The translations under genes and the position numbers were made by a program. DNA of 44,819 nt from contig DWZJ01000100.1 in assembly GCA_019118245.1 (NCBI GenBank), positions 1 through 44,819 of the forward strand, given 5' to 3'. A model generated the notes under the pieces. The model was not told the origin of the DNA. It did no database searches and saw only the letters and a program-made list of their open reading frames with translations. Positions 486-20,169 of this stretch are shown here, piece after piece (position 1 is the stretch's first letter; every line of letters starts with the position of its first letter). Origin of the DNA: Candidatus Oscillibacter excrementigallinarum (GTDB lineage Bacteria > Bacillota > Clostridia > Oscillospirales > Oscillospiraceae).

Positions 486-3092
486 TTGGCCGAACTGACC
501 CCCATGATGAAACAATACCTGGAGATCAAGAAGGACAACCCGGACTCCATCCTGTTCTTCCGCCTGGGCGACTTCTACGAGATGTTCGCCGACGACGCCA
601 AGCTGGCCTCCAAGGAATTGGACCTGACCCTCACCTCCCGGGACCACGGCAAGCACGCCAAGCCCGAGGAGGAGCGGGTGCCCATGTGCGGCATCCCCTA
701 CCATGCCAGCGAGGCCTATATCGCCCGGCTCATCGCCAAGGGCTACAAGGTGGCCATCTGCGAGCAGATGGAGGACCCCGCCACCGCCAAGGGCTTGGTG
801 AAGCGGGACATCATCCGGGTGGTGACCCCCGGCACGGTCATCGACGCCGCCTGTCTGGAGGACAAGTCCTCCAACTTCCTCTGCGGCATCTACATGGACA
901 GCCAGAACGCCGGCGTGGCCTTCTGCGACATCTCCACCGGCAAGACCCACCTGACGGCCTTTGACGGCCCGGAGCGGGTGGAGCACGTCATCAACGAGCT
1001 GGGCCGCTTCTCCCCGGCGGAGGCGGTGGTCAACGACGGGGCCTGTTCGGAAAAGGCCCTCACCGACACCCTGACGGAGAAGTTCCATTGCCGTGTGGAA
1101 AACGGCGGCGAGGGCCGCTTCCGCCTGGCGGAGGCGGAGAAGCACATCCGCCGCCAGTTCGGGGAGGAGGCGTTCGACCGCCTGCCCCGAAACAACCCGG
1201 CGGCGGCCATGGCCCTGGGGGGACTGCTGAATTATCTGTACGAGACCCAGAAGACGGATCTGTCCCACATCAACGACCTGGACTACTACGAGCAGGGCCG
1301 GTTCATGGAACTGGACCTGACTGCCCGGCGGAATCTGGAGCTGACGGAGACCCTCCGGGGCCAGGAGAAGAAGGGGTCTCTCCTGTGGGTGCTGGACAAG
1401 ACCAGGACTCCCATGGGAGGCCGGCTGCTCCGCAGCTGGCTGGAGCGGCCGCTGCTGAGCGTCACCGCCATCGTCAAGCGCAACGCCGCCGTGGCCGCCC
1501 TGGTGGAGAACACCATCCAGCGGGAGGAGCTCATCGCCGCCATGACGGGGCTGGGGGACATGGAGCGGCTCATCGGCCGCATCGTCTACGGCACCGCCGG
1601 CGGGCGGGACATGGTGTCCCTGCGGTCCGCCATTGAGCGGCTGCCCGTCCTGCGGGAACAGCTGGCGGCCTTCTCCGGCGGCCGGCTGGCGGAGCTGGCG
1701 GCGGAGCTGGACGACCTGACGGAGATCGGGGAGCGCATCGGCGCGGCCATCTGCGACGAGCCGCCGTTCTCCGTCCGGGAGGGCGGCTTCATCCGGGACG
1801 GCTACCACGAGGAAGTGGACCGCCTGCGCCGCATCATGAACGGCGGCAAGGGCGTCCTGGCGGAGATCGAGGCCAAGGAGAAGGAGAAGACCGGCATCCG
1901 CACCCTGAAGATCGGCTACAACAAGGTGTTCGGGTATTACATCGAGGTGTCCAATTCCTTCAAGGACCAGGTGCCGGACACCTACATCCGCAAGCAGACG
2001 CTGGTGAACGGGGAGCGGTACATCACCCAGGAGCTGAAGGACCTGGAGCACGAGATCCTCACCGCCTCGGACCGGGTGGTGGCCCTGGAGTACGAGCTCT
2101 TCACAGAGCTGCGGCAGGCCATCTCCGCCCAGAGCGCCCGCATCCAGCGGACTGCGGCCGCGGTGGCGGAGGTGGATGCCCTGGTGTCCTTCGCCGCGGT
2201 GGCGGTGCGGAACCACTACTGCCGCCCCACGGTGGACGAGTCCGGCGTCATCGAGATCCACGACGGCCGCCACCCGGTGGTGGAGCAGATGCTCAAGGAC
2301 AGTCTCTTCGTCCCCAACGACACCTTCATGGGGGAGAAGGAGGATCGGGTGGCCATCATCACGGGGCCAAACATGGCGGGCAAGTCCACCTATATGCGCC
2401 AGGTGGCCCTGATTGTGCTGATGGCCCAGATGGGGTCCTTCGTCCCGGCGGCCAGCGCCCGCATCGGCGTGGTGGACCGGATCTTCACCCGCATCGGCGC
2501 CAGCGACGACCTGTCCGCCGGCAAGTCCACCTTCATGGTGGAGATGACGGAGGTGGCGGACATCCTGCGCCACGCCACCCGCCACTCCCTGCTGATCCTG
2601 GACGAGATCGGCCGGGGCACCAGCACCTTTGACGGGATGTCCATCGCCCGGGCGGTGCTGGAGTACTGCGCGGACAAGAAGCTGCTGGGGGCCAAGACCC
2701 TCTTCGCCACCCATTACCACGAGCTGACGGAGCTGGAGAACACCCTGCCCGGCACCGTGAACTACAACATCGCCGTCAAGACCCGGGGAGAGGACATCAT
2801 CTTCCTGAGGAAGATCCTCCTCGGCGGGGCGGACCGCAGCTACGGCATCGAGGTGGCCAAGCTGGCGGGGTTGCCGGACAAGGTGGTCCAGCGGGCCAAG
2901 ACGGTCTTGAAGGAGCTGGAGGAGGAAAACGGCGTCCAGTACGTGGCCGCCCGGAAGGAAGAGGACCAGGTGTCCCTCACCGCCATCAGCGAGGGGGAGG
3001 TCCTGGACGCCCTCCGCCGCTGCCAGGTGGAGACGCTGACGCCGCTGGAGGCCATGAATCTCATTTATGAGTGGAAAAAGAAGCTCAGCTAA
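486..3092 (+). CDS. mutS: DNA mismatch repair protein MutS
   Basis: MutS recognises mispaired bases and starts methyl-independent mismatch repair with MutL. The protein is 868 residues, the usual family length. The mismatch-wedge motif F30-Y-E32 sits in GDFYEMF near the N-terminus. The ATPase domain carries the Walker A motif GPNMAGKST at 627-635 and the Walker B/signature DEIGRGTSTFDG near 705-717. I chose the TTG start at 486 because GAGGTGA lies 7 nt upstream; the ATG at 504 has no ribosome binding site. The last 84 bp of the gene (3009-3092) are repeated at 3222-3305 beyond a hairpin-rich insert, with 9 differences. The functional C-terminus may therefore be of secondary origin. mutL follows after two unrelated genes. 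Confidence 0.97.
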   Translation: MAELTPMMKQYLEIKKDNPDSILFFRLGDFYEMFADDAKLASKELDLTLTSRDHGKHAKPEEERVPMCGIPYHASEAYIARLIAKGYKVAICEQMEDPATAKGLVKRDIIRVVTPGTVIDAACLEDKSSNFLCGIYMDSQNAGVAFCDISTGKTHLTAFDGPERVEHVINELGRFSPAEAVVNDGACSEKALTDTLTEKFHCRVENGGEGRFRLAEAEKHIRRQFGEEAFDRLPRNNPAAAMALGGLLNYLYETQKTDLSHINDLDYYEQGRFMELDLTARRNLELTETLRGQEKKGSLLWVLDKTRTPMGGRLLRSWLERPLLSVTAIVKRNAAVAALVENTIQREELIAAMTGLGDMERLIGRIVYGTAGGRDMVSLRSAIERLPVLREQLAAFSGGRLAELAAELDDLTEIGERIGAAICDEPPFSVREGGFIRDGYHEEVDRLRRIMNGGKGVLAEIEAKEKEKTGIRTLKIGYNKVFGYYIEVSNSFKDQVPDTYIRKQTLVNGERYITQELKDLEHEILTASDRVVALEYELFTELRQAISAQSARIQRTAAAVAEVDALVSFAAVAVRNHYCRPTVDESGVIEIHDGRHPVVEQMLKDSLFVPNDTFMGEKEDRVAIITGPNMAGKSTYMRQVALIVLMAQMGSFVPAASARIGVVDRIFTRIGASDDLSAGKSTFMVEMTEVADILRHATRHSLLILDEIGRGTSTFDGMSIARAVLEYCADKKLLGAKTLFATHYHELTELENTLPGTVNYNIAVKTRGEDIIFLRKILLGGADRSYGIEVAKLAGLPDKVVQRAKTVLKELEEENGVQYVAARKEEDQVSLTAISEGEVLDALRRCQVETLTPLEAMNLIYEWKKKLS

Positions 3093-3221
3093 GGAGGGCG
3101 TCCAGCCGCGCCGAGTGGCGCGTACAAGCGTTTTGCGGAGCAAAACCTTGGAATGGGCAGGCTTTGCCTGACCATTCGAATCAAATGCGGGGCCCCCGCC
3201 GGGCCTGCCCGGTGGGGTGCG
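3093..3221 (+). mobile_element. Four-hairpin insert at the mutS 3' end
   Basis: This 129-bp non-coding segment lies between the mutS stop codon and a second copy of the mutS end. It contains, in order: hairpin 1 at 3107-3122 (CGCGCC/GGCGCG); hairpin 2 at 3130-3146 (GTTTTGC, loop GGA, GCAAAAC) within the core AAGC...CCTTGG; hairpin 3 at 3151-3177 (GAATGG-GCAGGC/GCCTG-ACCATTC); and hairpin 4 at 3193-3217 (CCCCGCCGGGC/GCCCGGTGGGG), ending GTGCGG. The same order recurs at 10005-10131, 19945-20088 and, inverted, at 17980-18105. There is no U-tract, so it is not an ordinary terminator, and no protein is encoded. Calling it mobile is an inference from its recurrence and the flanking duplications. 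Confidence 0.6.
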
Positions 3222-3305
3222 GCCCTTCGCCGCTGCCAGGTGGAGACGCTGCCGCCGCTGGAGGCCATGAATCTGATCTACGAGTGGAAACAGAAGCTGA
3301 AGTAA
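3222..3305 (+). pseudogene. Detached second copy of the mutS 3' end
   Basis: These 84 bp match mutS 3009-3092 at 75 of 84 positions, in frame through the stop codon, without gaps. Eight codons differ and five of those changes are synonymous. The encoded end is ALRRCQVETLPPLEAMNLIY..., against ...ETLTPLEAMNLIY... in the intact gene. It has no start codon and cannot be expressed alone. It lies directly before the ribosome binding site of the next gene, so it is probably the original end of mutS, displaced by the insert. That direction of events is inferred. Confidence 0.85.
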
Positions 3306-3323
3306 CCATCGGGAGGAAACGAG

Positions 3324-4034
3324 ATGCCAAGAAGAAAGAGTGCCGCTTATATGTCGGCGGGGGAACAGATCGCGGGCACGGTGCTCTTTGTCATCTACCT
3401 GCTGGTGCTGCCCTTCGTCACCGCGCCCCTGTTCCGCCTGATCGGCGGACTGCTGGGGGTGACCATCAGCGAAGGACTGCAGAATATCCTCTATTACTAC
3501 ATCCTGTTCGCCGCAACCATCATCATCTTCCACGGCTTTCTGGGCCGGACCTCCCGGAACTTCGCGGACAACCTGGGCACGTCCTGCAAGTTCATGGCCG
3601 TGGGACTGGTGGCCCTGTACGGCCTGAACGAGCTGGCTTACCGGCTGACCCGGCTGGTGGTGCCCACCCAGACCAACCTGAACGACACCACCATCTCCGC
3701 CCAGATCCAGGACGCGCCCCACATGACGCTGCTGATCGTCATCTTCCTGGCGCCCTTTGTGGAGGAGGTCCTGTTCCGGGGACTGGTGTTCGGCAACCTC
3801 CGGCGCAAGAGCGCGGCGGTGGGCTACATCGTCAGCTGCCTGCTGTTCGCCCTGCTGCACGTGTGGCAGTTCGCGGTGGTGAACCGGGACATCACCTACT
3901 TCCTGCTGATGCTCCAGTACCTGGTGCCGGGGCTGGTGCTGGCCTGGGTCTATGACCGGACGGGGACGCTTTGGACCTCCATCGGCCTCCACGCGGCGGC
4001 CAACGCCCTGGCTGCCTGGACCCTTGTGGCGTGA
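3324..4034 (+). CDS. CPBP family intramembrane metalloprotease (CAAX-type)
   Basis: This 236-residue, strongly hydrophobic protein has about six to eight membrane segments. It carries the CPBP glutamate-arginine motif E147-E148-V-L-F-R152 and a downstream histidine, H179 in LLHVW, which together form the metal and active site of the family. A C-terminal GLHAAANALAAW segment supplies the last conserved motif. The family includes Rce1-like CAAX proteases and bacteriocin-immunity or signalling proteins, and the substrate cannot be predicted here. The ATG start follows GGGAGG at a good distance. It is the first complete gene after the displaced mutS end and separates mutS from mutL. Confidence 0.9.
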   Translation: MPRRKSAAYMSAGEQIAGTVLFVIYLLVLPFVTAPLFRLIGGLLGVTISEGLQNILYYYILFAATIIIFHGFLGRTSRNFADNLGTSCKFMAVGLVALYGLNELAYRLTRLVVPTQTNLNDTTISAQIQDAPHMTLLIVIFLAPFVEEVLFRGLVFGNLRRKSAAVGYIVSCLLFALLHVWQFAVVNRDITYFLLMLQYLVPGLVLAWVYDRTGTLWTSIGLHAAANALAAWTLVA

Positions 4035-4069
4035 GAACGCTCGAAAAGACGACGAGGAGAGAACGACGC

Positions 4070-4981
4070 ATGAATTTCTGGGACGTATTCGGAGAGATGC
4101 TGGTGATCCTGTTCGCCATCGCGGCGGGATACGCGGCCAACCGGCTGGGGTATCTGGGCGGGGAAACCGACCAGAAGATCTCCAAGCTGCTGCTGAACAT
4201 CACCATGCCCGCCATGATCGTGGCGGCGGTGATCACCGGCGAGGAGCTGCCGGAGCTGGGCACCATCCTCTCCATTCTGGAGGTGGGCATGGTGTTCTAC
4301 CTGCTGGAGCTGGTGTTCGTGCTGGTGGTGCCCCGGTTTCTGTCGGGGACGCCGTCGCAGAAGGGCGTCTGGAAGTACGCCCTGGCCTTTCCCAATGTGG
4401 GTTTCATCGGCTATCCCGTGGCGGTGGCCCTGTTTGGGGACGGCGCGCTGTTCTACGCCGCCATCCTGGCCCTGCCCTTCAATCTCCTGTCCTACAGCCT
4501 TGGTCCTCTGCTGCTGGCCGGCGCCGCCCGGTTCCGGTGGAAGCAGCTGTTCACTCCCTGCATTGTGGCCTCCGTCCTGGGGCTGGTGCTGGCCCTGACC
4601 CGACTGCGTCCCCCGGCACTGGTGGGGGAGATGCTGGACTTTGTGGGGGATATCACCGTGCCGCTGTCCCTGCTGGTGGTGGGGTCCCTGCTGGCGGGAA
4701 TGTCCGCCGGGCAGGTGCTCCGCTCCCCCAAGCTGTGGCTGCTGACGGCCATCCGCCTGCTGGTGCTGCCCGTGGTGCTGTGCCTGGTCCTCCGGCTCAT
4801 GGGCATCGACTCCCTGGTGCTGGGCATCGCCGTCACCCAGATGGCCATGCCCGTGGCGGTGAACGGAACGCTTCTGAGCATGGAGTACGGCGGCGACACA
4901 GAGTGCATGGCCCAGATCACCTTTTTGACCACGGCGGCTTCCATTTTGACCATTCCCATTGTCGCCGTGATGCTGCTTTGA
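4070..4981 (+). CDS. AEC family transporter (auxin efflux carrier-like permease)
   Basis: This 303-residue membrane protein has about ten hydrophobic segments. It shows the AEC pattern of two five-helix halves, with conserved early residues (AAGYAANRLGYL) and NITMPAMIVAAV in the first half. Bacterial members export or import small organic acids or amino-acid derivatives; the substrate is unknown here. I chose the ATG at 4070 over an upstream in-frame start because GAGGAGAGAACG precedes it. The gene begins 35 nt after the CPBP gene and ends 19 nt before mutL, so these genes are probably co-transcribed. Confidence 0.88.
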   Translation: MNFWDVFGEMLVILFAIAAGYAANRLGYLGGETDQKISKLLLNITMPAMIVAAVITGEELPELGTILSILEVGMVFYLLELVFVLVVPRFLSGTPSQKGVWKYALAFPNVGFIGYPVAVALFGDGALFYAAILALPFNLLSYSLGPLLLAGAARFRWKQLFTPCIVASVLGLVLALTRLRPPALVGEMLDFVGDITVPLSLLVVGSLLAGMSAGQVLRSPKLWLLTAIRLLVLPVVLCLVLRLMGIDSLVLGIAVTQMAMPVAVNGTLLSMEYGGDTECMAQITFLTTAASILTIPIVAVMLL

Positions 4982-5000
4982 GCTTAGAAAGGAACGCAAA

Positions 5001-7064
5001 ATGCCACACATTCAACAACTGGACAGCCATGTGGCGGACCTGATCGCCGCCGGCGAGGTGGTGGAACGGCCCGCCAGCGTGGTGAAGGAACTGGTGGAAA
5101 ATGCCATTGACGCCGGAAGCTCCGCCGTGGTGGTGGAGATCCGCCGGGGCGGCATGGGCCTGATCCGGGTGACGGACAACGGATGCGGCATCGCCCCGGC
5201 CGAGCTGCCCACCGCCTTCCTGCGCCACGCCACCTCCAAGCTGCGGACGGAGGCGGATCTGGGGAAGATCGGCACCCTGGGGTTCCGGGGCGAGGCTCTG
5301 GCCGCCATCTCCGCCGTCAGCCGGGTGGACATCCTGACCCGCCAGGCCGGCATGGCGGAGGGAGCATCCCTCCACCTGGAAGGGGGCGTACCTGGTCAGG
5401 TGGAGGCCGCCGGGGCGCCGGAGGGCACCACCATCACGGTCCGGGACCTGTTCTACAACACCCCGGCCCGGCTGAAATTCATGCGCAAGGACAGCGCGGA
5501 GACCGCGGCGGTGAACGGCCTGATGCAGCATCTGGCCCTGTCCCACCCGGATATCTCCTTCAAATTCATCAAGGATGGGGTGGAGGCTCTGCTGACCCCC
5601 GGCGACGGAAAGCTGGCCTCCGCCGTCTACGCGGCCCTGGGCCGGGACTTTGCCCGGGGACTGGTGCCGGTGTCCGGCAGCGGGGGAGACATCTCCGTCT
5701 CCGGCTTTGTCACCGCGCCGCTGATGGGCCGGGGCTCCCGGTCCATGCAGGTATTCTTCGTCAACGGCCGGTTCATCAAGTCCCAGCTGCTGACGGCGGC
5801 GCTGGAGGAGGGCTACCGCAACCAGATCATGAAGGGCAAGTTCCCCGGCTGCGTCCTGTCCGTCACCCTGCCGGTGACGGCGGTGGACGTGAACGTCCAC
5901 CCGGCCAAGACCCAGGTGAAGTTCGCCCGGGAGCACGACGTGTTCGACGCCGTCTACCACACGGTGCTGGATGCCCTGGACAAGACCGGCGCGCCCGCTG
6001 CCGCCCCGGCAAAGGAGCCGCCTTTGCCGGCGCCCTCCCGGCAGGACTTCTTCCAGACCATGGACGCCAAGACCTTCCGCCAGGGCGGCGGGAAGCCCCA
6101 GACCCCGGCCCCGGTCCGGCCCGCCTGGAACACGGAGCTGCGGGCATCCGCCAAAGTGGCGGACAGCGGGCAGACCTCCTTCTACCAGACGAAGCGGCAG
6201 GCCTCTGCGGCCCAGAGCGCTCTGGGCCGGGCTCCGTCCTCTGTGACAGCGCCATCCGAGAGGCAGCAGTCGCCCCCGGCTCCCGCATACCGGAGTGCAT
6301 TGGGGCAGCCTCCAGCCTCTGTGGCCGCACCGGCGGCGGAACAGCGGAGAGAGGAGCCCGTGGCTCCCGCCCCGGCATCCGTCCCTGCGGAAATAGCGAC
6401 CCCACAGCCGGCCGCCCCCCGGCCCTTTGTGCCGGCCATCCCGCCGGAGCAGCTGAAGCTGACGGAGAACCTGCCGGGCCAGACCGCCCTGGAGACGAAG
6501 GAGGTCCCCTGGCGGATCGCCGGGGAGGTGCTGCGGACCTACATCATCTGCGAGAGCGAAGATGGCTGCGTCTGGCTCATCGACAAGCACGCCGCCCACG
6601 AGCGGATCAACTTTGATAAGCTGAAGAATGCCCAGGAGCCCCCCATGCGGCAGACGCTGCTGGTCCCCATCGCGGCGGAGCTGAGCCGGGAGGACGGGGC
6701 GCTGCTGCTGGAGAACCTGCCCCTGCTGGAGCAGTTCGGCTTTGCCTGCGAGGACTTCGGCGGCGGGGCCCTGCTGGTGCGGGAGGTGCCTGCGGACATT
6801 GATGCCGCCGACACCGTGTCCACCCTGGAGGAGTTCGCCGAGTGCCTGCGGACCGGCCGGTCCCCGGACGAGAAGCGGGAGAATCTGCTCCACACCATGG
6901 CCTGCAAGGCGGCCATCAAGGGCGGCTGGGTCAGCGACCCGGCGGAGCTGCGGGTGCTGGTGGACCGGGTCCAGAGCGGAGAGGTCAAATACTGCCCCCA
7001 CGGCCGCCCGGTGGCGGTGAAGCTGACGAGGTACGAACTGGAAAAAATGTTCCACCGAGCGTAA
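5001..7064 (+). CDS. mutL: DNA mismatch repair protein MutL (endonuclease type)
   Basis: MutL couples mismatch recognition by MutS to strand incision. The protein is 687 residues. The N-terminal GHKL ATPase shows ELVENAIDAGS, DNGCGI and TLGFRGEAL. A proline/alanine-rich linker spans about 335-480. The C-terminal dimerisation/endonuclease domain has D528-K-H-A-A-H-E534, ACKAAIKGG and C665-P-H-G-R-P, the metal-site motifs of MutL proteins that nick DNA. The usual final glutamate of the DQHA(x)2E(x)4E motif is an aspartate here. A lack of MutH would fit this organism group. The stop codon lies inside a 14-bp stem at 7059-7091. Confidence 0.97.
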   Translation: MPHIQQLDSHVADLIAAGEVVERPASVVKELVENAIDAGSSAVVVEIRRGGMGLIRVTDNGCGIAPAELPTAFLRHATSKLRTEADLGKIGTLGFRGEALAAISAVSRVDILTRQAGMAEGASLHLEGGVPGQVEAAGAPEGTTITVRDLFYNTPARLKFMRKDSAETAAVNGLMQHLALSHPDISFKFIKDGVEALLTPGDGKLASAVYAALGRDFARGLVPVSGSGGDISVSGFVTAPLMGRGSRSMQVFFVNGRFIKSQLLTAALEEGYRNQIMKGKFPGCVLSVTLPVTAVDVNVHPAKTQVKFAREHDVFDAVYHTVLDALDKTGAPAAAPAKEPPLPAPSRQDFFQTMDAKTFRQGGGKPQTPAPVRPAWNTELRASAKVADSGQTSFYQTKRQASAAQSALGRAPSSVTAPSERQQSPPAPAYRSALGQPPASVAAPAAEQRREEPVAPAPASVPAEIATPQPAAPRPFVPAIPPEQLKLTENLPGQTALETKEVPWRIAGEVLRTYIICESEDGCVWLIDKHAAHERINFDKLKNAQEPPMRQTLLVPIAAELSREDGALLLENLPLLEQFGFACEDFGGGALLVREVPADIDAADTVSTLEEFAECLRTGRSPDEKRENLLHTMACKAAIKGGWVSDPAELRVLVDRVQSGEVKYCPHGRPVAVKLTRYELEKMFHRA

Positions 7065-7091
7065 AGGGGGGACACAGTCCCCCCTTTACGC
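7059..7091. terminator. Strong hairpin over the mutL stop codon
   Basis: GCGTAAAGGGGGGA pairs with TCCCCCCTTTACGC around a 5-nt loop (14 bp). No T-run follows (CTCCGG), so it is not a textbook Rho-independent terminator. It may protect the 3' end of mRNA or belong to the palindrome cluster that follows. Confidence 0.5.
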
Positions 7092-7561: not shown

Positions 7562-7565
7562 ACGG

Positions 7566-8159: not shown

Positions 8160-8174
8160 AAGGAGACGGCTGCC

Positions 8175-9758: not shown

Positions 9759-10004
9759 ATGCAGACGAAAGCGAATCTACAAGACCTGTTTCTTCTCCGG
9801 GCCAGACGGGACAAGCTGCCCGTCACCATGTTTCTGATGAACGGCTTCCAGATGCGGGGCGTCATCACCGGCTTTGACGCCTTCGTGGTGGTGCTGGACA
9901 GCGACGGCCGCCAGCAGATCATCTACAAGCACGCGATCTCCACCATCGCGCCGGTGCGGCCGGTGGACCTGGAGAGCGGGGAGCCGGCCGACGCGCAAGC
10001 GTGA
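9759..10004 (+). CDS. hfq: RNA chaperone Hfq
   Basis: Hfq forms a hexameric Sm-like ring that binds sRNAs and mRNAs. The protein is 81 residues. The Sm1 region includes [15 protein letters not shown], and the Sm2 region has the YKHAISTI motif (canonical YKHA) that lines the proximal U-binding face. The C-terminal tail is short, as in Gram-positive Hfq. AAGGAG precedes the ATG. The last 99 bp (9906-10004) are repeated at 10132-10230 with only two differences, separated by a four-hairpin insert. The tail ends EPADAQA in the gene and EPAAAQA in the detached copy. Confidence 0.96.
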
Positions 10005-10131
10005 GCGCGCCGCCGCGGAAGCGGCGTGAAAGTGTTTTGTGAAACAAAACCTTTCCATGGGCCGGATTCACTTCGGCCCATGAAAATGAGATCCGGGGGT
10101 CCCCAGTCAGCGCGGAGCGCTGATTGGGGCC
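10005..10131 (+). mobile_element. Four-hairpin insert at the hfq 3' end
   Basis: This 127-bp non-coding insert lies between hfq and a duplicated hfq end. Hairpin 1 is at 10011-10026 (CGCCGC/GCGGCG). Hairpin 2 is at 10034-10050 (GTTTTGT, loop GAA, ACAAAAC) with the AAGTG...CCTTT core. Hairpin 3 is at 10056-10082 (CATGGGCCG/CGGCCCATG). Hairpin 4 is at 10101-10129 (CCCCAGTCAGCGC/GCGCTGATTGGGG). The stem sequences differ from the mutS and lepA inserts, but positions and pairing are kept. Similarity between the two hfq copies runs about 20 nt past the stop codon, so hairpin 1 may belong to the duplicated flank here. Confidence 0.6.
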
Positions 10132-10230
10132 GGCCGGCAGCAGATCATCTACAAGCACGCGATCTCCACCATCGCGCCGGTGCGGCCGGTGGACCTGGAG
10201 AGCGGGGAGCCGGCCGCCGCGCAAGCGTGA
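10132..10230 (+). pseudogene. Detached second copy of the hfq 3' end
   Basis: These 99 bp match hfq 9906-10004 at 97 positions, including the stop codon. The differences are one synonymous change (Arg, CGC to CGG) and one Asp-to-Ala change in the tail. Similarity continues for some 20 nt beyond the stop. It covers the YKHA region to the C-terminus but has no start codon or ribosome binding site. It is the youngest-looking of the four duplicated ends. Confidence 0.88.
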
Positions 10231-10284
10231 ACGCGCCGCTGCGGGAGCAGGACTCCCTCGGACACAGAGATAAAGAGGTAACCC

Positions 10285-12781: not shown

Positions 12782-12808
12782 AAGGACACGAGGGGGTAAC
12801 ATCACGCT

Positions 12809-13513: not shown

Positions 13514-13518
13514 GCAGA

Positions 13519-13547
13519 AAAAGCGGCTCACGGGAGCCGCTTTTTTC
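13519..13547 (+). terminator. Rho-independent terminator after divIVA
   Basis: AAGCGGCTC pairs with GAGCCGCTT around a short loop and is followed by a T-rich run (TTTTTTCTTC). It closes the hfq/yggS/sepF/divIVA transcript. Confidence 0.92.
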
Positions 13548-13577
13548 TTCCCTGGATTTTGATTGGAGGCGCCAGCC

Positions 13578-14456
13578 ATGAAGCAGCAGCCCATCGTGGC
13601 CTTTCTGTACGACTTTGACAAGACCCTCTGCACCACGGATATGCAGGACTACGCCTTCATCCCCTCCCTGGGGATGACCCCGGCCGAGTTCTGGGCGGAG
13701 GCCAACGGCTTCGGCCAGCGGAACCGGATGGACGGCATCCTGGCTTATATGTACACCATGATCCGGGAGGCGGAGCGGCGGGACCGGCCTTTCACCCGGG
13801 CGGACCTGGTGGAGAAGGGCCGCAGCATCGTGCTGTTCCCCGGTGTGGAGGACTGGTTCCGCCGGATCAACGACTTCGGCGCCAGCCAGGGCGTCCAGGT
13901 GGAGCACTACATCATCTCCTCCGGCCTGCGGGAGATCATCGAGGGCTCCTCTATCAGCCAGGAGTTCAAGGAGATCTACGCCAGTGAGTTCTACTACGAC
14001 GAGAACGGCGTGCCCGTGTGGCCCAAGCTGGCGGTGAACTTCACCGCCAAGACCCAGTTCGTCTACCGGATCAACAAGGGGGTCCTGGACGTGTCCAACG
14101 ACCGGGACCTGAACGCCTCCATGCCGGATGACAGCAAGCGGGTGCCCTTCACCAACATGATCTACATGGGAGACGGCCTCTCCGACGTGCCCTGCATGAA
14201 GATGATGCGGGCCTACGGCGGCCAGGCCATCGCCGTGTACCAGGCCGGCAACCGCCCCGGCGTGGAGGACCTGCTGGCGAAGGGCCGGGTGGACTTCATC
14301 TTCCCGGCGGACTACCGGGCGGGCTCCGCCCTGGAGGCCACGGTGCAGGACATCATCCGGAAGATGGCGGTGACGGACCGGCTGTGGGAGGAGAACGTCC
14401 GCCAGCTGCGCTCCATCGGCGGGGACGTGCTGCTGGGGCAGCTGGGACTGTTTTGA
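13578..14456 (+). CDS. HAD family hydrolase / phosphatase
   Basis: This 292-residue protein carries HAD motif I as YDFDKTLC near residues 11-18, motif II in YIISSGLREI, a lysine region and motif III as YMGDGLSDVPCM. It belongs to the phosphoserine-phosphatase-like (type I cap) group, and the substrate is unknown. I chose the ATG at 13578 because TTGGAGG lies 8 nt upstream; an in-frame TTG at 13563 overlaps that site. It is flanked by terminators on both sides, so it is probably monocistronic. Confidence 0.88.
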   Translation: MKQQPIVAFLYDFDKTLCTTDMQDYAFIPSLGMTPAEFWAEANGFGQRNRMDGILAYMYTMIREAERRDRPFTRADLVEKGRSIVLFPGVEDWFRRINDFGASQGVQVEHYIISSGLREIIEGSSISQEFKEIYASEFYYDENGVPVWPKLAVNFTAKTQFVYRINKGVLDVSNDRDLNASMPDDSKRVPFTNMIYMGDGLSDVPCMKMMRAYGGQAIAVYQAGNRPGVEDLLAKGRVDFIFPADYRAGSALEATVQDIIRKMAVTDRLWEENVRQLRSIGGDVLLGQLGLF

Positions 14457-14476
14457 ACGAGAGGCCGGATACCCTT

Positions 14477-14515
14477 GGGGGAAGGCGCCTTGACGGCACC
14501 TTCCCCTTCGGTTTT
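14477..14515 (+). terminator. Terminator after the HAD gene
   Basis: GGGGAAGG pairs with CCTTCCCC, with an inner GC-rich bulge. A short T-containing tract (TTCGGTTTTG) follows. It separates the HAD gene from the promoter of the next operon. Confidence 0.75.
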
Positions 14516-14537
14516 GCCCCGGCGGGGGGAATGGCTC

Positions 14538-14566
14538 TTTACAATTCGTAGCATGTTTGTTAAACT
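14538..14566 (+). promoter_or_regulatory. Sigma-A promoter of the XRE / MBOAT operon
   Basis: The -35 box TTTACA (14538-14543) and the -10 box TAAACT (14561-14566) are separated by 17 bp in a locally AT-rich stretch. The start codon of the XRE gene lies 42 nt downstream of the -10 box. Confidence 0.75.
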
Positions 14567-14607
14567 ATACATCGTGTATTATACAGATCCTGAAGGAGAG
14601 AGAAAAA

Positions 14608-15297
14608 ATGGCTGCTTCCACTGAATTTTCCCGGACCCTGTCCCTGCTGCGGCAGGAGCGGGGCGTCTCCCAGCGCACCGCCGCAGCGGACCTGGGCATC
14701 TCCCAGGCCCTGCTGAGCCACTATGAGAACGGCATCCGGGAGCCGGGCCTGGCCTTTGTGGTGAAGGCCTGCGATTACTACCACGTCTCCGCGGACTTCA
14801 TCCTGGGCCGCACCCTGTCCCGGGAGGGGAATATGCTGACGGAACAGGAGATCCTCAACGCCGCCGAGCCGGGGAACATCCTCCAGGGCAGCGTGCTGGC
14901 CACCCTCCAGAGCAAGCTGCTCTCCGGCGCCATCGGCGTGCTGTTCGGCCTGCTGGGCAAGCTGAACGACAAGGGGGCCATCAACGCCGCCGCCGGGTAT
15001 CTGGGCAGCGCCGTGTACCAGCTGTACCGCCACCTGTACCGGACCGCCGGCGCCAATGAGGCGTTTTTCTCCCTGGACCCCGCCGCCTGCACCATGGGCA
15101 CGGCGGAGGCGGACATGAAGCTGTCGGAGATCCAGTACACCCGCAGCCTCCGGGCCCAGGCGGCCAAGAAGGCGGCGTTCCCGGACCTGTCCAACGAGGC
15201 CCTGACCGCCGCCTATCCCGGCCGGTGCCAGAGCCTGACCCAGGTGCTGAGCACGGCGGACGCCCGCCTCAGCGCCCTGACGGAGAAGGGCAGATGA
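14608..15297 (+). CDS. XRE-type helix-turn-helix regulator
   Basis: This 229-residue protein has an N-terminal HTH_3 domain (LSLLRQERGVSQRTAAADLG, ISQALLSHYENGIREPGLAF) over about 8-64. The mainly helical C-terminal half has no recognised fold. The ATG at 14608 follows AAGGAGAG; an upstream in-frame ATG at 14557 overlaps the promoter and is rejected. Its stop codon overlaps the start of the acyltransferase gene (ATGA), so the regulator is translated together with the MBOAT gene. It probably regulates its own operon, but no operator was identified. Confidence 0.88.
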   Translation: MAASTEFSRTLSLLRQERGVSQRTAAADLGISQALLSHYENGIREPGLAFVVKACDYYHVSADFILGRTLSREGNMLTEQEILNAAEPGNILQGSVLATLQSKLLSGAIGVLFGLLGKLNDKGAINAAAGYLGSAVYQLYRHLYRTAGANEAFFSLDPAACTMGTAEADMKLSEIQYTRSLRAQAAKKAAFPDLSNEALTAAYPGRCQSLTQVLSTADARLSALTEKGR

Positions 15298-16733
15298 GCT
15301 TTCAATCCCTGGGCTTCTTGGCCTTTTTGATGTCAACACTGGCCGTGTGCCTGCCGGCGGGACGCCACAGCCCCAGAGCGGACGCGGCCCTGCTGACCAT
15401 CGCCTCCGCCGTCTTTTACCTTCTGGGCCCCGGCGGATGGACCGCGGTGCTGGGCGGGCTCGCCTGCCTGCTGCTGGGCATTGCGGTGACGGCCTGGGCC
15501 ATCCGGCGGATGGCCCGGTCCGGCGGCAGCCGCCGCCGGATCCTGGCGCTGGCCTGTGTCTATCACATCGCAGTGCTGGTGGGCTTCAAGTATACGGAGT
15601 TCCTCACCGGCGGCGCGGTGGAGGTGGGCTGGGCGCCCCTGGGGCTGAGCTTCTTCACCTTCCAGCAGCTGTGGCTGCTGAAAGAAGTTTATACCGGGGA
15701 ATACGTCCCCGCGCCGGGGGACAGCCTGCTGCTCTACGGCCTGTTTTTCCCCACCGTCACCTCGGGCCCCATCCTGCGGCCGGACACCTTCTTCCCCCAG
15801 CTGCGGGGAGAGAGCCTCCTTCGCCCGGACTGGCCCGACGCGGCGGCGGGCGTCTATGGCATCTGCTGCGGCACCATCAAGAAAGTGCTTCTGGCAGACG
15901 CCTTCGGCGTGGTGGTGGACAACGGCTGGGCCAACCCGGGGGAGCTGAGCGCCCCGGCGGCCTGGCTGGTGATCCTGGGCTACACCCTCCAGCTGTACTT
16001 TGACTTCTCTGGCTACTGCGACATCGCCGCCGGCATCGCCCGGCTCCTGGGCCTGCGGCTGCCTGTAAACTTCGACTCCCCCTACCGCAGCGCCTCCGTG
16101 ACGGAGTTCTGGAAGCGGTGGCACATCACCCTCACCACCTTCCTGCGGGAGTGTCTGTACTTCCCCCTGGGGGGCAGCCGCCGGGGGACGGCCCGGACGT
16201 ACCTGAACATCCTGATCATCTTTCTGGTCAGCGGCCTCTGGCACGGGGCGGGCTGGACGTTCCTGGTCTGGGGCGCCCTCCACGGCCTGGCCCAGGTCCT
16301 CGAGCGGGCCTGGGGCAAGCGCCGGGACCATCTGCCCCTCCTGCTCCGGTGGGGACTGACCGTCCTGTTCGTCAACCTCGCCTGGGTGTTCTTCCGGGCG
16401 CCGGACTGCGCCGCAGCCCTGGAGCTGCTGGGCCGGGCCGTCACCGGCGGCCTGACTGGGCCGGAGCCCTGGCTGCTGGAGGGCCTCTTTGCCCAGGAGA
16501 CCGACGCCGTGCAGCTGCTGTTTCCCGCCGTGGCAGCCCCCTGGTGGGACGCCCTGCGGACGGCACTGCTGTATGGCGCGGGAATGATCGCCGTCCTCTG
16601 GCCCCGGAACGTGATTCACCGGATGGAGGACTTCCGTCCCACCCTCTGGCGGGGCGCGGGCCTGGCGGTGCTGACGCTGTGGTGCGTGCTGTCCTTCAAC
16701 GGCGTCACCAGCTTTATCTATTCCAACTTCTGA
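15294..16733 (+). CDS. MBOAT family O-acyltransferase
   Basis: This 479-residue, multi-spanning membrane protein belongs to the AlgI/DltB/PatA group, which passes acyl groups across the membrane to extracellular polymers. Conserved blocks are FWKRWHITLTTFLRECLYFP, LGGSRRG and SGLWHGAGWTFLVWGALHG, with the catalytic histidine H317. The start overlaps the XRE stop codon by four bases. An SGNH-type partner follows 10 nt downstream, the arrangement seen for DltB/DltD and PatA/PatB. The acceptor (peptidoglycan, teichoic acid or exopolysaccharide) cannot be named, as no polymer synthesis genes are adjacent. Confidence 0.93.
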   Translation: MSFQSLGFLAFLMSTLAVCLPAGRHSPRADAALLTIASAVFYLLGPGGWTAVLGGLACLLLGIAVTAWAIRRMARSGGSRRRILALACVYHIAVLVGFKYTEFLTGGAVEVGWAPLGLSFFTFQQLWLLKEVYTGEYVPAPGDSLLLYGLFFPTVTSGPILRPDTFFPQLRGESLLRPDWPDAAAGVYGICCGTIKKVLLADAFGVVVDNGWANPGELSAPAAWLVILGYTLQLYFDFSGYCDIAAGIARLLGLRLPVNFDSPYRSASVTEFWKRWHITLTTFLRECLYFPLGGSRRGTARTYLNILIIFLVSGLWHGAGWTFLVWGALHGLAQVLERAWGKRRDHLPLLLRWGLTVLFVNLAWVFFRAPDCAAALELLGRAVTGGLTGPEPWLLEGLFAQETDAVQLLFPAVAAPWWDALRTALLYGAGMIAVLWPRNVIHRMEDFRPTLWRGAGLAVLTLWCVLSFNGVTSFIYSNF

Positions 16734-16743
16734 GGAGGGCCGT

Positions 16744-17823
16744 ATGAAGCAAGCGTATCGCCGCTGGGTCTGCGGCCTTCTGGCGGGCATCATCGCCCTG
16801 CTGGCGGCCTGCGGCGCGGTGGTCTATGTGGTGGACCCCTGCCTGTACTACCGGGTCCCGGACAAGTGGCAGCCAGTGCTGTTCAACGAGCGGTATCAGA
16901 TGGCGGGCCTGGCCAGGAACGTGGAGGCGGACACGGTGCTGGTGGGGACCTCCATGGCGGCCAATTACCGGGCCAGCTGGATCGAAGAGACCTTCGGCAC
17001 CTCCGCGGTGCGGCTCACCATTCCAGACGGATATTACAGTGAGTTTGACCAGGTGATGGACCTTCTGTTTCAGGCCCAGGACCGGGAGCGGGTGATCTTC
17101 GCCATGGATCTGAACACCCTGGTCCGGGATGAGAGCGGCCTGACAGGGGCACTGCCAGACTATCTCTACAACAGCAGCCCCCTGGACGATATCCAGTATC
17201 TGCTGAACAAGGACACTCTGTATTACAGTGTCTACACCCTGCTGGCCAACCACTGGGGACAGGGAGACACCATTGACGAGGGATTCACCTGGGACCAAAA
17301 TGAGTGGTGGAACCATATGTCTGCCCTGAAAAATTACCAGCGCCCGGAGATCGCCGGGGGGCAGCTGCCCGCTGGCGCGTACGCCGCCGATGTGGCCGCC
17401 AATCTGGCGGTGCTGGAGGGCTGGATCACGCGGCATCCCGAGACAGAGTTCGACATTTTTCTGTCGCCCTACAGCATCCTCTTCTGGGATAAGGTGATCC
17501 GGGATGGAAGCGTGGAGGCGGTGTTCGCCGCCATCCGCCAGGTGGGGGAGACCCTGCTGCAATATGACAATGTGAAGCTCTACGGCTATCTCATGGACGC
17601 GGACATCGTGGCGGATCTGGACAACTACTGTGACTATGTCCATCACTCCGGCGCTGTCTGCCAGGAGATCCTGGCCATGCTCCGGGCGGACGAGGGACGA
17701 TTGACGGCGGAAAATCTCGAGGAGACTCTGGCCAGCTGGCACGAGTTTGTGATACACTATGACTATGAAAAATTCTGGGACGAGAGCTTCTGGCACCAGT
17801 GGAACGCGGAGCACGGCGCCTGA
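16744..17823 (+). CDS. DltD/SGNH-like extracytoplasmic acyl-transfer partner
   Basis: This 359-residue protein has one N-terminal membrane anchor (about 8-30). VGTSMAAN supplies a candidate nucleophile, S70, and a C-terminal D297-Y-V-H300-H301 matches the D-x-x-H end motif of SGNH and DltD-type enzymes. The C-terminal region ends WHEFVIHYDYEKFWD. It probably takes the acyl group from the upstream MBOAT protein and moves it to an extracellular acceptor. That role is inferred from gene pairing and motifs. GAGGAGGGCCGT precedes the ATG. Confidence 0.75.
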   Translation: MKQAYRRWVCGLLAGIIALLAACGAVVYVVDPCLYYRVPDKWQPVLFNERYQMAGLARNVEADTVLVGTSMAANYRASWIEETFGTSAVRLTIPDGYYSEFDQVMDLLFQAQDRERVIFAMDLNTLVRDESGLTGALPDYLYNSSPLDDIQYLLNKDTLYYSVYTLLANHWGQGDTIDEGFTWDQNEWWNHMSALKNYQRPEIAGGQLPAGAYAADVAANLAVLEGWITRHPETEFDIFLSPYSILFWDKVIRDGSVEAVFAAIRQVGETLLQYDNVKLYGYLMDADIVADLDNYCDYVHHSGAVCQEILAMLRADEGRLTAENLEETLASWHEFVIHYDYEKFWDESFWHQWNAEHGA

Positions 17824-17866
17824 CGACGGCCCCGTTTGTGAATTGAATTTACGGCGTGACCCGCCG

Positions 17867-17883
17867 GGCCCGCATAGCGGGCC
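17867..17883. terminator. Hairpin downstream of the SGNH gene
   Basis: GGCCCGC pairs with GCGGGCC around a 3-nt loop. Only a weak T-tract follows (TTGCG), so termination is uncertain. It sits immediately before the first lepA end copy. Confidence 0.4.
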
Positions 17884-17885
17884 TT

Positions 17886-17979
17886 GCGTGGACCTGCCGA
17901 TGGAGGATTTCCGTATATGACAAAGCAATCGAACATCCGAAACTTTTCTATTATCGCCCATATCGACCGCGGCAAGTCC
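17886..17979 (+). pseudogene. Detached second copy of the lepA 5' end
   Basis: This copy covers the lepA leader (GCGTGGAC onward), ribosome binding site and first 21 codons, and matches 18106-18201. In the 63 coding bases 9 differ. Seven codons change and six of those changes are synonymous. The only replacement is the GTPase-motif histidine (codon 18), which is arginine here. The upstream copy keeps a GGAGG site and an ATG at 17917. It reads on into the insert and stops at 17997, giving a possible 26-residue peptide. It is probably the original lepA start, cut off by the insert. Confidence 0.87.
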
Positions 17980-18105
17980 GATTCCCACAAAGCCTGACGG
18001 CTTTGCGGGAGCCCTTTTGATGGAACATCCTCGGGCGGAGTGAATCCGCCCTGCGGCAAGGTTTTGGCTGCGCCAAAACGTTTGGACGCGCGTCCGCGCG
18101 AGGCA
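17980..18105 (-). mobile_element. Four-hairpin insert at the lepA 5' end (inverted)
   Basis: This 126-bp non-coding insert is inverted relative to the other three, so its core again faces the intact gene. Read on the reverse strand: hairpin 1 at 18084-18095 (a GGACGC/GCGTCC palindrome); hairpin 2 at 18061-18079 (GTTTTGGC, loop GCA, GCCAAAAC) in the AACG...CCTTG core; hairpin 3 at 18033-18051 (GGGCGGA/TCCGCCC); hairpin 4 at 17984-18009 (CCCGCAAAGCC/GGCTTTGTGGG). The last part of any transcript start signal for lepA must lie in or upstream of this insert. Confidence 0.6.
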
Positions 18106-18138
18106 GCGTGGACTTGCCCAAGGAGGTTTTTACAGAGT

Positions 18139-19944
18139 ATGACAAAACAGAGCAACATTCGAAACTTTTCTATCATCGCCCATATTGACCACGGCAAGTC
18201 CACGCTGGCGGACCGGCTGCTGGAGAAGTGCAACGCCGTCTCCGCCCGGGAGATGGAGAGCCAGCTGCTGGACAACATGGACCTGGAGCGGGAGCGGGGC
18301 ATCACCATCAAGGCCCGGGCCGTCCGGCTGACCTACCATGCCCAGGACGGGGAGGACTATGAACTGAACCTCATCGACACCCCGGGCCATGTGGATTTCA
18401 ACTACGAGGTGTCCCGATCCCTGGCTGCCTGCGAGGGCGCCGTGCTGGTGGTGGACTCCACCCAGGGCGTGGAGGCCCAGACGCTGGCCAACACGTACCT
18501 GGCCATGGAGCACGACCTGGAGATCCTGCCGGTGTTCAACAAGATCGACCTGCCGGCGGCGGACCCCGCCAAGGCCAAGCAGGAGGTGGAGGACATCATC
18601 GGCCTGCCGGCCCTGGACGCGCCGGAGATCTCCGCCAAAATGGGAACCAACATCGAAGCGGTGCTGGAGGACATTGTGAAAAATGTGCCGCCTCCCAAGG
18701 GGGATCCCAATGCCCCTCTGAAGGCGCTGATCTTCGACAGCCAGTATGACTCCTACAAGGGCGTCATCGTCTATTTCCGCATCATGGAGGGCACCCTCCG
18801 GACAGGCCAGCAGGTGAAGATGATGGCCTCCGGCGCCACCTACCAGGTCGTTGAGTGCGGCCATCTGCTGCCCCTGGGCATGGAGCCATGCGATCAGCTC
18901 CGGGCCGGCGAGGTGGGCTACTTCACCGCCTCCATCAAGAACGTGAAGGACACCCGGGTGGGCGACACCGTCACCGACGCCGCCGCCCCCACGGCGGAGC
19001 CGCTGCCCGGCTACCGGCCCGTGCAGCCCATGGTCTACTGCGGCATCTACACGGAGGACGGCTCCAAGTACCCGGACCTGCGGGACGCCCTGGAGAAGCT
19101 CCAGCTGAACGACGCCTCCCTGAGCTTTGAGCCGGAGAGCTCCGTGGCCCTGGGCTTCGGCTTCCGGTGCGGCTTTTTGGGGATGCTCCACATGGAGGTG
19201 ATCCAGGAGCGGCTGGAGCGGGAGTTCGACCTGGACCTGGTGACCACCCTGCCCTCCGTCATCTACCACGTGTACAAGACCGACGGCACACAGGTGTCCG
19301 TGGACAATCCCCACAACTACCCGGATCCGGCGGTGATCGAGCACGCGGAGGAGCCCTACGTCAAGGTGAACATCATCGCCCCCAACGAGTATGTGGGCAA
19401 CATCATGCCCATGTGCCAGGACCGCCGGGGCGAGTTCAAGGATATGCAGTACCTGGACACCAACCTGGTGGAGCTCCACTATCAGATGCCCCTGAACGAG
19501 ATCATCTACGACTTCTTCGACGCCCTGAAGGCCAACACCAAGGGCTACGCGTCCCTGGACTATGAGCTCTCCGGCTACCGGCCCAGCGAGCTGGTGAAGG
19601 TGGACCTGAAGCTGAACGGGGAGATGGTGGATGCCCTGAGCTTCATTGCCCACAGGGACAAGGCGTACCCCCGGGCCCGGCGGCTGTGCGAGAAGCTGAA
19701 GGAGAACATCCCCCGGCAGCTGTTCGAGGTGCCGGTCCAGGCGGCCATCGGCGGCCGGGTCATCGCCCGGGAGACCGTGAAGGCCATGCGGAAGGACGTG
19801 TTGGCCAAGTGCTACGGCGGCGACATCACCCGGAAGAAAAAGCTGCTGGAAAAGCAGAAGGAGGGCAAGAAAAAGATGCGCTCCCTGGGAAGTGTCCAGA
19901 TTCCCACAGAGGCGTTCCTGGCAGTTCTCAAGCTGAATGAGTGA
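18139..19944 (+). CDS. lepA: Elongation factor 4 (LepA), ribosome-associated GTPase
   Basis: LepA is a translational GTPase that binds ribosomes under stress and during initiation or biogenesis. The protein is 601 residues, the family length. The P-loop AHIDHGKS is at 14-21, followed by [17 protein letters not shown]-like domains III and V, and the LepA-specific C-terminal domain ([16 protein letters not shown]). I chose the ATG at 18139 because AAGGAGG precedes it; an upstream in-frame start at 18040 lies inside the insert. Both ends of the gene are flanked by four-hairpin inserts and detached end copies, so lepA has been hit twice. Confidence 0.96.
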
Positions 19945-20088
19945 TTTTGCCCTCCTGCGAGCAGCAGCGAGCCGCTGCGAGAGCGGCGTCAAGCGTTTTC
20001 CGAAGGAAAACCTTGGACCGGGCGGGCTTTGCCTGCCCGGTCAGGTCTTTTGCGGGGGCCCCGCAGGACCGAAGGCCCTGTGGGGTGC
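19945..20088 (+). mobile_element. Four-hairpin insert at the lepA 3' end
   Basis: This 144-bp non-coding insert contains hairpin 1 at 19971-19987 (GCCGCT/AGCGGC), hairpin 2 at 19995-20011 (GTTTTCC, loop GAA, GGAAAAC) in the AAGC...CCTTGG core, hairpin 3 at 20016-20042 (GACCGGGCGGGC/GCCTGCCCGGTC, loop TTT) and hairpin 4 at 20059-20085 (CCCCGCAGG/CCTGTGGGG). It ends GTGCGG like the mutS insert. In the four inserts the hairpin 2 inner pairs read GC/GC, GT/AC, GGC/GCC and CC/GG, so sequence changes while pairing stays. Confidence 0.62.
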
Positions 20089-20169
20089 GGCAAGAAAAAG
20101 ATGCGCTCCCTGGGAAGTGTCCAGATTCCCACAGAGGCGTTCCTGGCAGTTCTCAAGCTGGATGAATAA
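20089..20169 (+). pseudogene. Detached second copy of the lepA 3' end
   Basis: These 81 bp match lepA 19864-19944 at 78 positions. The differences are Asn to Asp in the third-last codon, one synonymous Glu change and TGA against TAA. The terminator at 20175-20203 follows this copy and not the functional gene end. That suggests the detached copy is the original lepA end in its native context. Confidence 0.88.

What the first reader, a model, noticed from the sequence alone, without database searches (positions are those of the whole stretch)
3009..20169. A family of four-hairpin inserts that duplicate the gene end they sit next to
Seen: four non-coding inserts of 126-144 bp (3093-3221, 10005-10131, 17980-18105, 19945-20088) each lie between an intact gene and a second copy of 80-100 bp of that gene's end. 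All four carry four hairpins in the same order, with a conserved core AARYGTTTT...AAAACCTT at hairpin 2 and a CCCC...GGGG-type hairpin 4 at the far end. Stems differ in sequence but stay paired (hairpin 2 inner pairs GC/GC, GT/AC, GGC/GCC, CC/GG). Orientation follows the intact gene, so the copy at the lepA start is inverted. Inference: a structured RNA or single-stranded DNA element that integrates at gene ends and restores the gene, like tRNA-targeting islands but far smaller and without its own protein. I know of no described family like this.
Basis: partly seen in the sequence, partly recalled or inferred. Interest (0 to 1): 0.96.

Follow-up and report, generated by a model that had tools for sequence, protein, structure and literature searches.

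The report
Guide-carrying hairpin elements at gene ends
Short non-coding DNA elements in gut Oscillospiraceae sit at the ends of conserved genes, carry a spare copy of the gene end they interrupt, and contain a short stretch matching their own insertion site, which suggests a new kind of guided mobile DNA.

Summary
Each of the four inserts lies between an intact gene and a second copy of 64-118 bp of its end. They belong to a family found in 32 of 61 genomes of the genus, with strong covariation. A flanking repeat is present at 79 of 90 tested copies against 0 of 254 random positions.

I add three things. (1) Just 5' of the first hairpins lies a guide of about 10-16 nt, complementary to the gene across the insertion point (38 of 54 elements, 20 of 266 controls). 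It tracks species-specific target changes (71 better, 14 worse, 21 ties of 106). (2) The two gene ends differ like functional alleles (third codon positions 131 of 181). (3) Insert-free relatives exist for the mutS and lepA-end sites; there the displaced copy is the native one.

Best reading: a non-autonomous, guide-directed homing cassette, working most like IS200/IS605 guide-palindrome transposition or fungal gene-end homing elements. No enzyme was found: IS110, Y1/RAYT, reverse transcriptase, IscB and TnpB do not track it. My searches found no described equivalent.

The parts
3004..3015 (+). e1 target site in mutS, spanning the insertion point (between 3008 and 3009)
   Evidence: 12-nt perfect complement of the guide 3093-3104 (L010)
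3009..3092 (+). e1 left (in-frame, used) copy of the mutS 3' end
   Evidence: gene named; 81/84 identical to element-bearing G058, 74/84 to empty G045
3093..3104 (+). e1 guide GGAGGGCGTCCA
3105..3177 (+). e1 hairpins H1, H2 (conserved core), H3
   Evidence: R1 match 94 bits; covariation
3178..3221 (+). e1 linker GGGGCCCCC motif, H4 and right end
3222..3305 (+). e1 displaced native mutS 3' end
   Evidence: the empty site of G045 has a matching tail and the same 118-bp spacing to the downstream flank
9905..10004 (+). e2 left copy of the hfq 3' end (the repeat runs on to 10022)
   Evidence: Hfq
9985..9994 (+). e2 guide-like stretch CGGCCGACGC inside the hfq C-terminus (weak, one mismatch)
   Evidence: score 15
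10005..10130 (+). e2 hairpins H1-H3 (10009-10082), linker and H4 (about 10101-10129)
10131..10248 (+). e2 displaced copy of the hfq 3' end and flank
17916..17979 (+). e3 displaced lepA start (not used; His codon of the HIDHGKS motif changed)
   Evidence: its leader resembles that of G045
17980..18102 (-). e3 H4, linker, H3, H2, H1 (element inverted)
   Evidence: R1 match on minus strand, 32.7 bits
18104..18118 (-). e3 guide (GGCAAGTCCACGCTG on the minus strand)
   Evidence: 15-nt perfect complement of the lepA target around 18201/18202 (L023)
18138..18201 (+). e3 functional lepA start supplied next to the element, with a ribosome-binding site just before it
19864..19945 (+). e4 left copy of the lepA 3' end
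   Evidence: LepA
19947..19956 (+). e4 guide TTGCCCTCCT
   Evidence: 10-nt complement of AGGAG|GGCAA at 19864 (L009)
19971..20042 (+). e4 H1-H3
   Evidence: R1 match 96.2 bits
20043..20088 (+). e4 linker GGGGGCCCC, H4, right end
20089..20170 (+). e4 displaced native lepA 3' end
   Evidence: stop and downstream match the empty site of G056

Best explanation
Each insert is the distal half of a mobile unit of about 220 bp: [donor gene end, 34-100 nt from the cut to the stop codon in the gene 3'-end type (n=46)] - [guide] - (H0) - H1 - H2 - H3 - GGGGYCCCC linker - H4. The guide base-pairs with one strand of an orthologous, empty gene across the future cut. The cut is made there, often just after GA (by eye). 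H4's end is joined to the right side of the cut, and the unit's own gene end continues the reading frame on the left. The host gene therefore stays intact and its native end is pushed downstream. The unit is a homing cassette specialised on one conserved gene, and it occasionally acquires a guide and gene end for a new gene. It encodes no protein, so a trans-acting or host enzyme must cut and join. The layout (a guide directly 5' of a palindrome, pairing with the cleavage site; a second palindrome whose outer arms pair at the right end) is closest to single-stranded IS200/IS605 transposition, with a much longer guide. Shown: architecture, guide-target pairing and its co-variation, allele-like divergence of the two ends, displaced copy native at mutS and the lepA end. 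Inferred: mobility now, a single-stranded DNA intermediate, the existence of the enzyme.
For: Guide: the best complement of the 32 nt before H1, searched over about 366 nt upstream, is centred within 10 nt of the insertion point in 38 of 54 elements, against 20 of 266 when another element's segment is used. The guide fits its own host's target better than the same gene's target in other species: 71 better, 14 worse, 21 ties of 106, Wilcoxon p=1.2e-5 over 42 guides. Guides of 9-16 nt recur at most of the sites with a repeat in other genera and in named isolates. In 38 of 56 units the predicted RNA fold pairs target and guide with at least 6 pairs. Differences between the two gene-end copies fall at codon positions 1/2/3 as 21/29/131 (p=1e-26 against one third), more biased than I would expect from duplication followed by decay of one copy (at most about half at position 3; my reasoning, not a test). 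The intact gene is on the guide side in 56 of 56 distinct copies with a gene called over the left copy. Empty sites: G045 at mutS (spacing 118 against 118 bp) and G056 at the lepA end (115 against 118); the lepA start of G045 is shorter by 222 bp, one unit. Scaffolds up to 88% identical stand at different genes with different guides. Elements at the same gene are more alike (0.81, n=46 pairs) than at different genes (0.715, n=1487).
Against: No enzyme found. None of the candidate families tracks the carriers. Within one genome the two ends (80-100% identical) are generally more alike than the same ends across species (A-A mean 0.83, B-B 0.81), so the donor must usually be a close strain, or gene conversion acts. 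Carriers form essentially one clade in the 30 genomes treed, so vertical inheritance is large. Some elements are shared and decaying (hfq and mutS in G023, hfq in G045; by eye). Precise loss by recombination between the repeats would also make 'empty' sites. In 16 of 54 elements the best complement is not at the insertion point; the HinT-like and amidase-like groups match poorly. 11 of 90 lack a clear repeat. No near-identical pair at two genes was seen (maximum 88%), so retargeting is not recent here. Two L076 copies are tandem units without a gene end.
Confidence: 0.6

Rival explanations
1. The guide acts as RNA: the unit is transcribed and an RNA-guided recombinase, nuclease or reverse transcriptase (bridge-RNA-like, OMEGA-like homing, or target-primed reverse transcription) inserts it.
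For: Guide directly 5' of a strongly covarying scaffold, like a guide RNA; right junction at the 3' end of the structure; 48 of 56 copies are co-oriented with the gene.
Against: 8 of 56 stand antisense at gene starts. Carriers against non-carriers with the family: IS110 7 of 14 vs 10 of 14, RVT_1 6 of 14 vs 7 of 14, IscB over cut-off 1 of 18 vs 2 of 14, TnpB 6 of 18 vs 9 of 14. No Rfam match at gathering score on the four inserts.
Confidence: 0.25
2. There is no dedicated transposition. The tandem gene-end structures are old, maintained and exchanged by ordinary homologous recombination and transformation, and the hairpins and inverted repeat serve mRNA stability or regulation.
For: Carriers form one clade; tandem arrays with nearly identical units look like unequal crossing-over; element remnants persist; one non-carrier, G033, has a guide-like lepA leader; no enzyme found.
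Against: Scaffold relatives at about 20 different genes with guides fitted to most of those tested; antisense copies at gene starts; insert-free mutS and lepA-end sites; the guide spans the insertion point.
Confidence: 0.12
3. A palindromic MITE that makes long target-site duplications; the second copy then decays neutrally.
For: Direct repeats flank the insert; a conserved gene survives only if the duplication covers its end.
Against: Third-codon bias of the differences (131 of 181) suggests both copies were under selection; one orientation relative to the intact gene (56 of 56); the guide; unit length near 218 bp (n=56, range 160-266).
Confidence: 0.03

Closest known systems
IS200/IS605 insertion sequences (IS608, ISDra2) and TnpA-REP/REP hairpins
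   Same: Cleavage sites chosen by base pairing with a guide 5' to a palindrome, and changing the guide retargets the element (PMC8266576, passages read); palindromes near both ends; non-autonomous derivatives exist (recalled).
   Different: Their guide is a tetranucleotide; here it is about 10-16 nt spanning the cut. Here the unit carries a host gene end and is one of many gene-specific versions. No Y1 transposase tracks the family.
Fungal mitochondrial mobile ORFs that replace a gene's C-terminus (Allomyces atp6, Glomus atp6/atp9/cox2/nad3)
   Same: The inserted element brings its own gene end and displaces the native end downstream; the native end matches relatives without the insert; in Glomus atp6 the two ends are 63.5% identical in DNA but 91% in protein (PMC3630166, passages read).
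   Different: Those encode a homing endonuclease (about 400-1000 bp in that paper's table); this unit has no protein, is about 220 bp, has a covarying hairpin scaffold and a guide, and also occurs at gene starts.
IS110 bridge-RNA elements
   Same: Programmable two-sided recognition of roughly a 14-bp target by a structured nucleic acid (recalled; papers seen only as search listing with the start of the abstract).
   Different: Contiguous complement to one strand rather than split loops; no IS110 recombinase association; carries a gene end.
tRNA-gene integrating islands
   Same: Insertion at a gene end with the gene restored by the incoming copy (recalled).
   Different: Those are kilobases long with an integrase (recalled); here many protein genes, about 220 bp, no integrase in the unit.

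Membership tests
IS200/IS605 (including non-autonomous derivatives) | Y1 HUH transposase present or tracking the elements | tested here: not met
   PF01797 in 9 of 14 carriers and 6 of 14 non-carriers, many of them fragments or RAYTs
IS200/IS605 (including non-autonomous derivatives) | Guide 5' of a palindrome complementary to the cleavage site | tested here: met
   but about 10-16 nt and spanning both sides of the cut
IS200/IS605 (including non-autonomous derivatives) | Insertion without target duplication; excision restores the site exactly | tested here: inconclusive
   mutS spacing 118/118 bp against G045 fits if the unit includes the gene end; homologous deletion would look the same
REP/RAYT system | RAYT gene co-occurring with and flanked by the repeats | tested here: not met
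   RAYT profile in 9 of 32 carriers and 6 of 29 others; in the RAYT loci (L135-L139, L146, L150) the best model score is 13.7 bits; one Y1-fragment locus in a non-carrier, L148, gave 26.3 bits. The RAYT loci were not scanned
IS110 / bridge RNA | IS110 recombinase tracking the elements | tested here: not met
   7 of 14 carriers vs 10 of 14 non-carriers
OMEGA (IscB, TnpB) guide RNA elements | Nuclease gene tracking the elements | tested here: not met
   IscB over cut-off in 1 of 18 carriers vs 2 of 14; TnpB in 6 of 18 carriers vs 9 of 14 non-carriers
Group II intron / retrohoming | Reverse transcriptase in carrier genomes | tested here: not met
   No RVT_1 match in 8 of 14 carriers: G000, G004, G023, G027, G028, G045, G058, G059 (drafts, so absence is not proof)
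Known Rfam RNA family | Match above gathering score | tested here: not met
   window; only a purine riboswitch elsewhere; 5 loci, none at gathering score; the best by E-value, ctRNA_pGA1 35.4 bits against 45, lies outside the element in L016
Fungal-type gene-end homing element | Encoded homing endonuclease | tested here: not met
   Units of 160-266 bp (n=56)
Fungal-type gene-end homing element | Inserted end in frame, native end displaced and matching insert-free relatives | tested here: met
   for mutS and the lepA end; hfq and the lepA start have no pristine empty site

The most novel reading that the evidence does not exclude
A programmable, guide-directed insertion system without its own protein: about 220-bp cassettes that each carry a 10-16 nt guide for one conserved bacterial gene plus a replacement end for that gene, and home into empty alleles through an unknown cutting and joining enzyme. 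Cassettes reprogram to new genes by changing guide and gene end.
Probability: 0.5. Interest if true: 0.95.

Novelty: categorically new. Interest (0 to 1): 0.88.

Why it matters
If true, this is a new class of guided mobile DNA in gut bacteria. It combines a programmable guide with a built-in repair of the gene it enters, so that it can live in conserved genes without harm. It would point to an unrecognised enzyme doing guided insertion, and it gives a large natural set of guide-target pairs to work out the rules. It could also explain how the ends of housekeeping genes are swapped between strains.

Tried and rejected
Simple target-site duplication: rejected on codon-position bias and orientation. 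Terminator or 3' UTR element only: disfavoured because copies stand antisense at lepA and uvrB starts and H4 is not followed by a T-run in the printed junctions. Intron: disfavoured for the antisense copies; no Rfam model matched the inserts. Enzyme search: IS110, Y1 (44), RAYT (50), RVT_1 (59), IscB (60), TnpB (90) - none tracks carriers. Proteins beside elements: the recurring clusters are orthologous neighbours or large superfamilies (GTPases, MutS family, ABC ATPases); no mobile-element protein stood out, by eye. Non-carriers were re-searched with laxer filters: 4 of 29 with one weak hit each. Plasmid collection: no match for one element. Four 'phage' records with hits: in L272 and L273, 8 of the 10 proteins scanned match ordinary metabolic, DNase or transport families and 2 match nothing, and L274 holds a tRNA, so I take them as chromosome pieces; proteins of L274 and L275 were not scanned. 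A longer version with its own ORF: none seen in the flanks printed; not searched systematically. Literature: ten full-text searches over open-access PMC; others returned nothing; several others gave capped lists (for example 12 of 147, 8 of 85). I read passages of two papers only and opened none of the bacterial ncRNA surveys listed. bioRxiv is not held as a library. My early label 'mutS2' was wrong; the gene is mutS. Notes give wrong tallies for IS110 and RVT_1; the counts here were re-read from the calls.
Full report
Observation. Direct repeats of 84, 118, 64 and 82 bp flank them, and each insert holds H1-H4 with the conserved H2 core. The genes are mutS, hfq and lepA; the lepA start copy is inverted.

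A family. From e1, e4 and two further copies found by a DNA search of the own genome I built a model of H1-H3. It finds 27 places at E<=1 in the own genome; by eye 18 have the architecture, 7 do not and 2 are opposite-strand shadows. 14 of the 18 have the flanking repeat. Of 61 genomes of the genus, 32 have matches, up to 30 per genome. The 29 without were searched again with laxer filters: 25 have none and 4 have one weak hit. Over the order, 11 of 247 genomes match. Among the genomes listed, 10 of 26 of the same family do (own genome included), and the single other-family genome, G298, gives two hits that do not look like the element. The 12 stretches found in named genomes include Oscillibacter sp. 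PC13 and Pseudoflavonifractor sp. An184, and the model matches in each of the 12. On a LepA tree of 30 genomes (the 30 best loci of 54 genomes with a match), carriers fall in one clade of 24 that holds one non-carrier.

Structure. On 83 distinct sequences the three helices are 97.6% paired against 83.3% in shuffles. 24 of 29 pairs show changes on both sides, and no shuffle of 500 reaches this. H4 is a hairpin preceded by GGGGYCCCC or a variant in most of the 90 linkers printed; it is missing or broken in some, such as L017, L018, L024, L026, L052 and the second unit of L080. H0, an extra hairpin between guide and H1, is often present.

Repeat and orientation. 79 of 90 elements have a direct repeat with score 50 or more, against 0 of 254 random positions in the same loci. 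The 90 were chosen from best and tandem hits, not at random. The right copy begins just after H4, and the left copy is preceded often by GA (a weak motif). Of 56 distinct copies with a gene called over the left copy, 48 are at gene 3' ends and 8 at gene starts, with that intact gene on the H0/H1 side and none called over the right copy. Exceptions: two tandem units of L076 have a gene only on the right and no gene-end repeat. The unit from repeat to repeat has median 218 bp (n=56). Tandem arrays of near-identical units occur.

Targets are conserved genes. Best NCBIfam matches, several of them below the family's curated cut-off: mutS, hfq, lepA (both ends), infB, era, uvrB start, IMP dehydrogenase, RNase HI, HinT-like, uppP, formate-tetrahydrofolate ligase, gpmI, pheT, trmL, prfB, alanine racemase, glucose-6-phosphate isomerase, a response regulator, an ABC ATPase and an amidase-like protein (20 representatives scanned).

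The guide. Just before H0 or H1 lies a stretch complementary to the gene across the insertion point, typically from about -7 to +7 (mean score 18.9 against 11.8 for mismatched pairs; 21 of 56 above the control's 99th percentile). Searching about 366 nt upstream without telling the script where the insertion is, 38 of 54 best complements fall within 10 nt of it, against 20 of 266 controls. Within one gene, guides fit their own host's version of the target better than other species' versions (71/14/21 of 106, p=1.2e-5). Examples at mutS: GCCCTCC with GGAGGGC (G000), GCCCTGC with GCAGGGC (G004), GCCATC with GATGGC (G022). Misses: the HinT-like group (3) and the amidase-like group (4) have weak or no contiguous match. 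Some of these keep complementarity on both sides with two unpaired bases at the cut (by eye; not tested).

Which copy is native. At mutS, G045 has no insert; its tail and downstream sequence match the displaced copy and the spacing is the same, 118 bp. The used copy is 81/84 identical to element-bearing G058 and 74/84 to G045. At the lepA end, G056 is empty and matches the displaced copy (spacing 115 against 118). At the lepA start, G045 is shorter by 222 bp, one unit, but keeps a guide-H0 remnant, so that site was occupied more than once. At hfq I found no pristine empty site among the nearest relatives; G045 and G023 hold decayed elements. Deletion between the repeats could also create empty sites; the non-carriers outside the clade with plain lepA ends suggest the direction. 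A guide-like complement above the shuffles' 95th percentile stands before the lepA start in 11 of 20 carriers with a readable leader (the own genome with its full element included) and in 1 (G033) of 6 non-carriers (G056, G008, G027 and G005 had no readable leader). G033 is a point against, or an old remnant.

Allele-like divergence. Differences between the two copies fall at codon positions 1, 2, 3 as 21, 29, 131. If one copy decayed after a plain duplication, I would expect at most about half at position 3 (reasoning, not a test). So both copies seem to have been functional recently, and the incoming unit to have carried its own end. Against a distant donor: across species the used ends are on average 83% alike and the displaced ends 81% (44 pairs), while the two ends within a genome are 80-100% alike. 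The donor is then usually a close strain, or gene conversion homogenises them.

Mechanism. The topology (guide 5' of a palindrome, pairing with the cleavage site) is that of IS200/IS605, whose guides are tetranucleotides and whose target changes with the guide (PMC8266576, passages). The gene-end exchange is that of fungal mitochondrial mobile ORFs (PMC3630166, passages). Neither family's enzyme is associated here. Tested families, carriers against non-carriers: IS110 7/14 and 10/14; Y1 9/14 and 6/14; RAYT 9/32 and 6/29; RVT_1 6/14 and 7/14; IscB over cut-off 1/18 and 2/14; TnpB 6/18 and 9/14. The 61 genomes are mostly drafts of 56-100% completeness, so absence is not proof. G037, a single-contig genome, carries 21 hits and has no TnpB or IscB match, though it has IS110, reverse transcriptase and a RAYT with a stop.

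Verdict. The feature is real, not chance, and not a member of any family I could test. The guided-homing reading is the best one; the enzyme and current mobility are unproven.

Noticed in passing
43092-43190: Purine riboswitch above its gathering score; ordinary.
   Followed up: no
L272 5916-6217; L274 1-171; own-genome L018 and L024: A sub-type without the usual H4 and gene end, in L272 and L274 in tandem (period about 97-121 bp), beside terminator-like hairpins next to tRNA-like genes (a tRNA-Cys confirmed only in L274); a short terminator-side sequence is repeated instead.
   Followed up: partly
L243 4943-5014 and 8642-8715: Two elements between genes of a phage-like IMG/VR contig (portal, major head protein), without duplicated gene ends; a possible vehicle for spread.
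   Followed up: partly
17880-17915: The displaced lepA leader carries its own guide-plus-hairpin remnant, also seen in relatives without a full element there: repeated occupation of one site.
   Followed up: partly
L139, L135, L138, L146: A RAYT gene beside a topoisomerase-like gene (GyrA/ParC by recalled motif) in four species of the genus; the one in G037 has an internal stop.
   Followed up: partly
L006, L007 (G000:C34): Two different hairpin arrays between genes share CCGGGCGGGCTTTGCCTGCCCGG (one letter differs) but lack H2; another repeat type.
   Followed up: no
L264 (G043 lepA end): A diverged element inserted about 3 nt away at the same gene end, with a guide that fits only with one bulged base (by eye).
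   Followed up: no
MT837775.1, MT838853.1: GenBank 'Bacteriophage sp.' scaffolds; 8 of the 10 proteins scanned match ordinary bacterial families; probably misclassified.
   Followed up: partly
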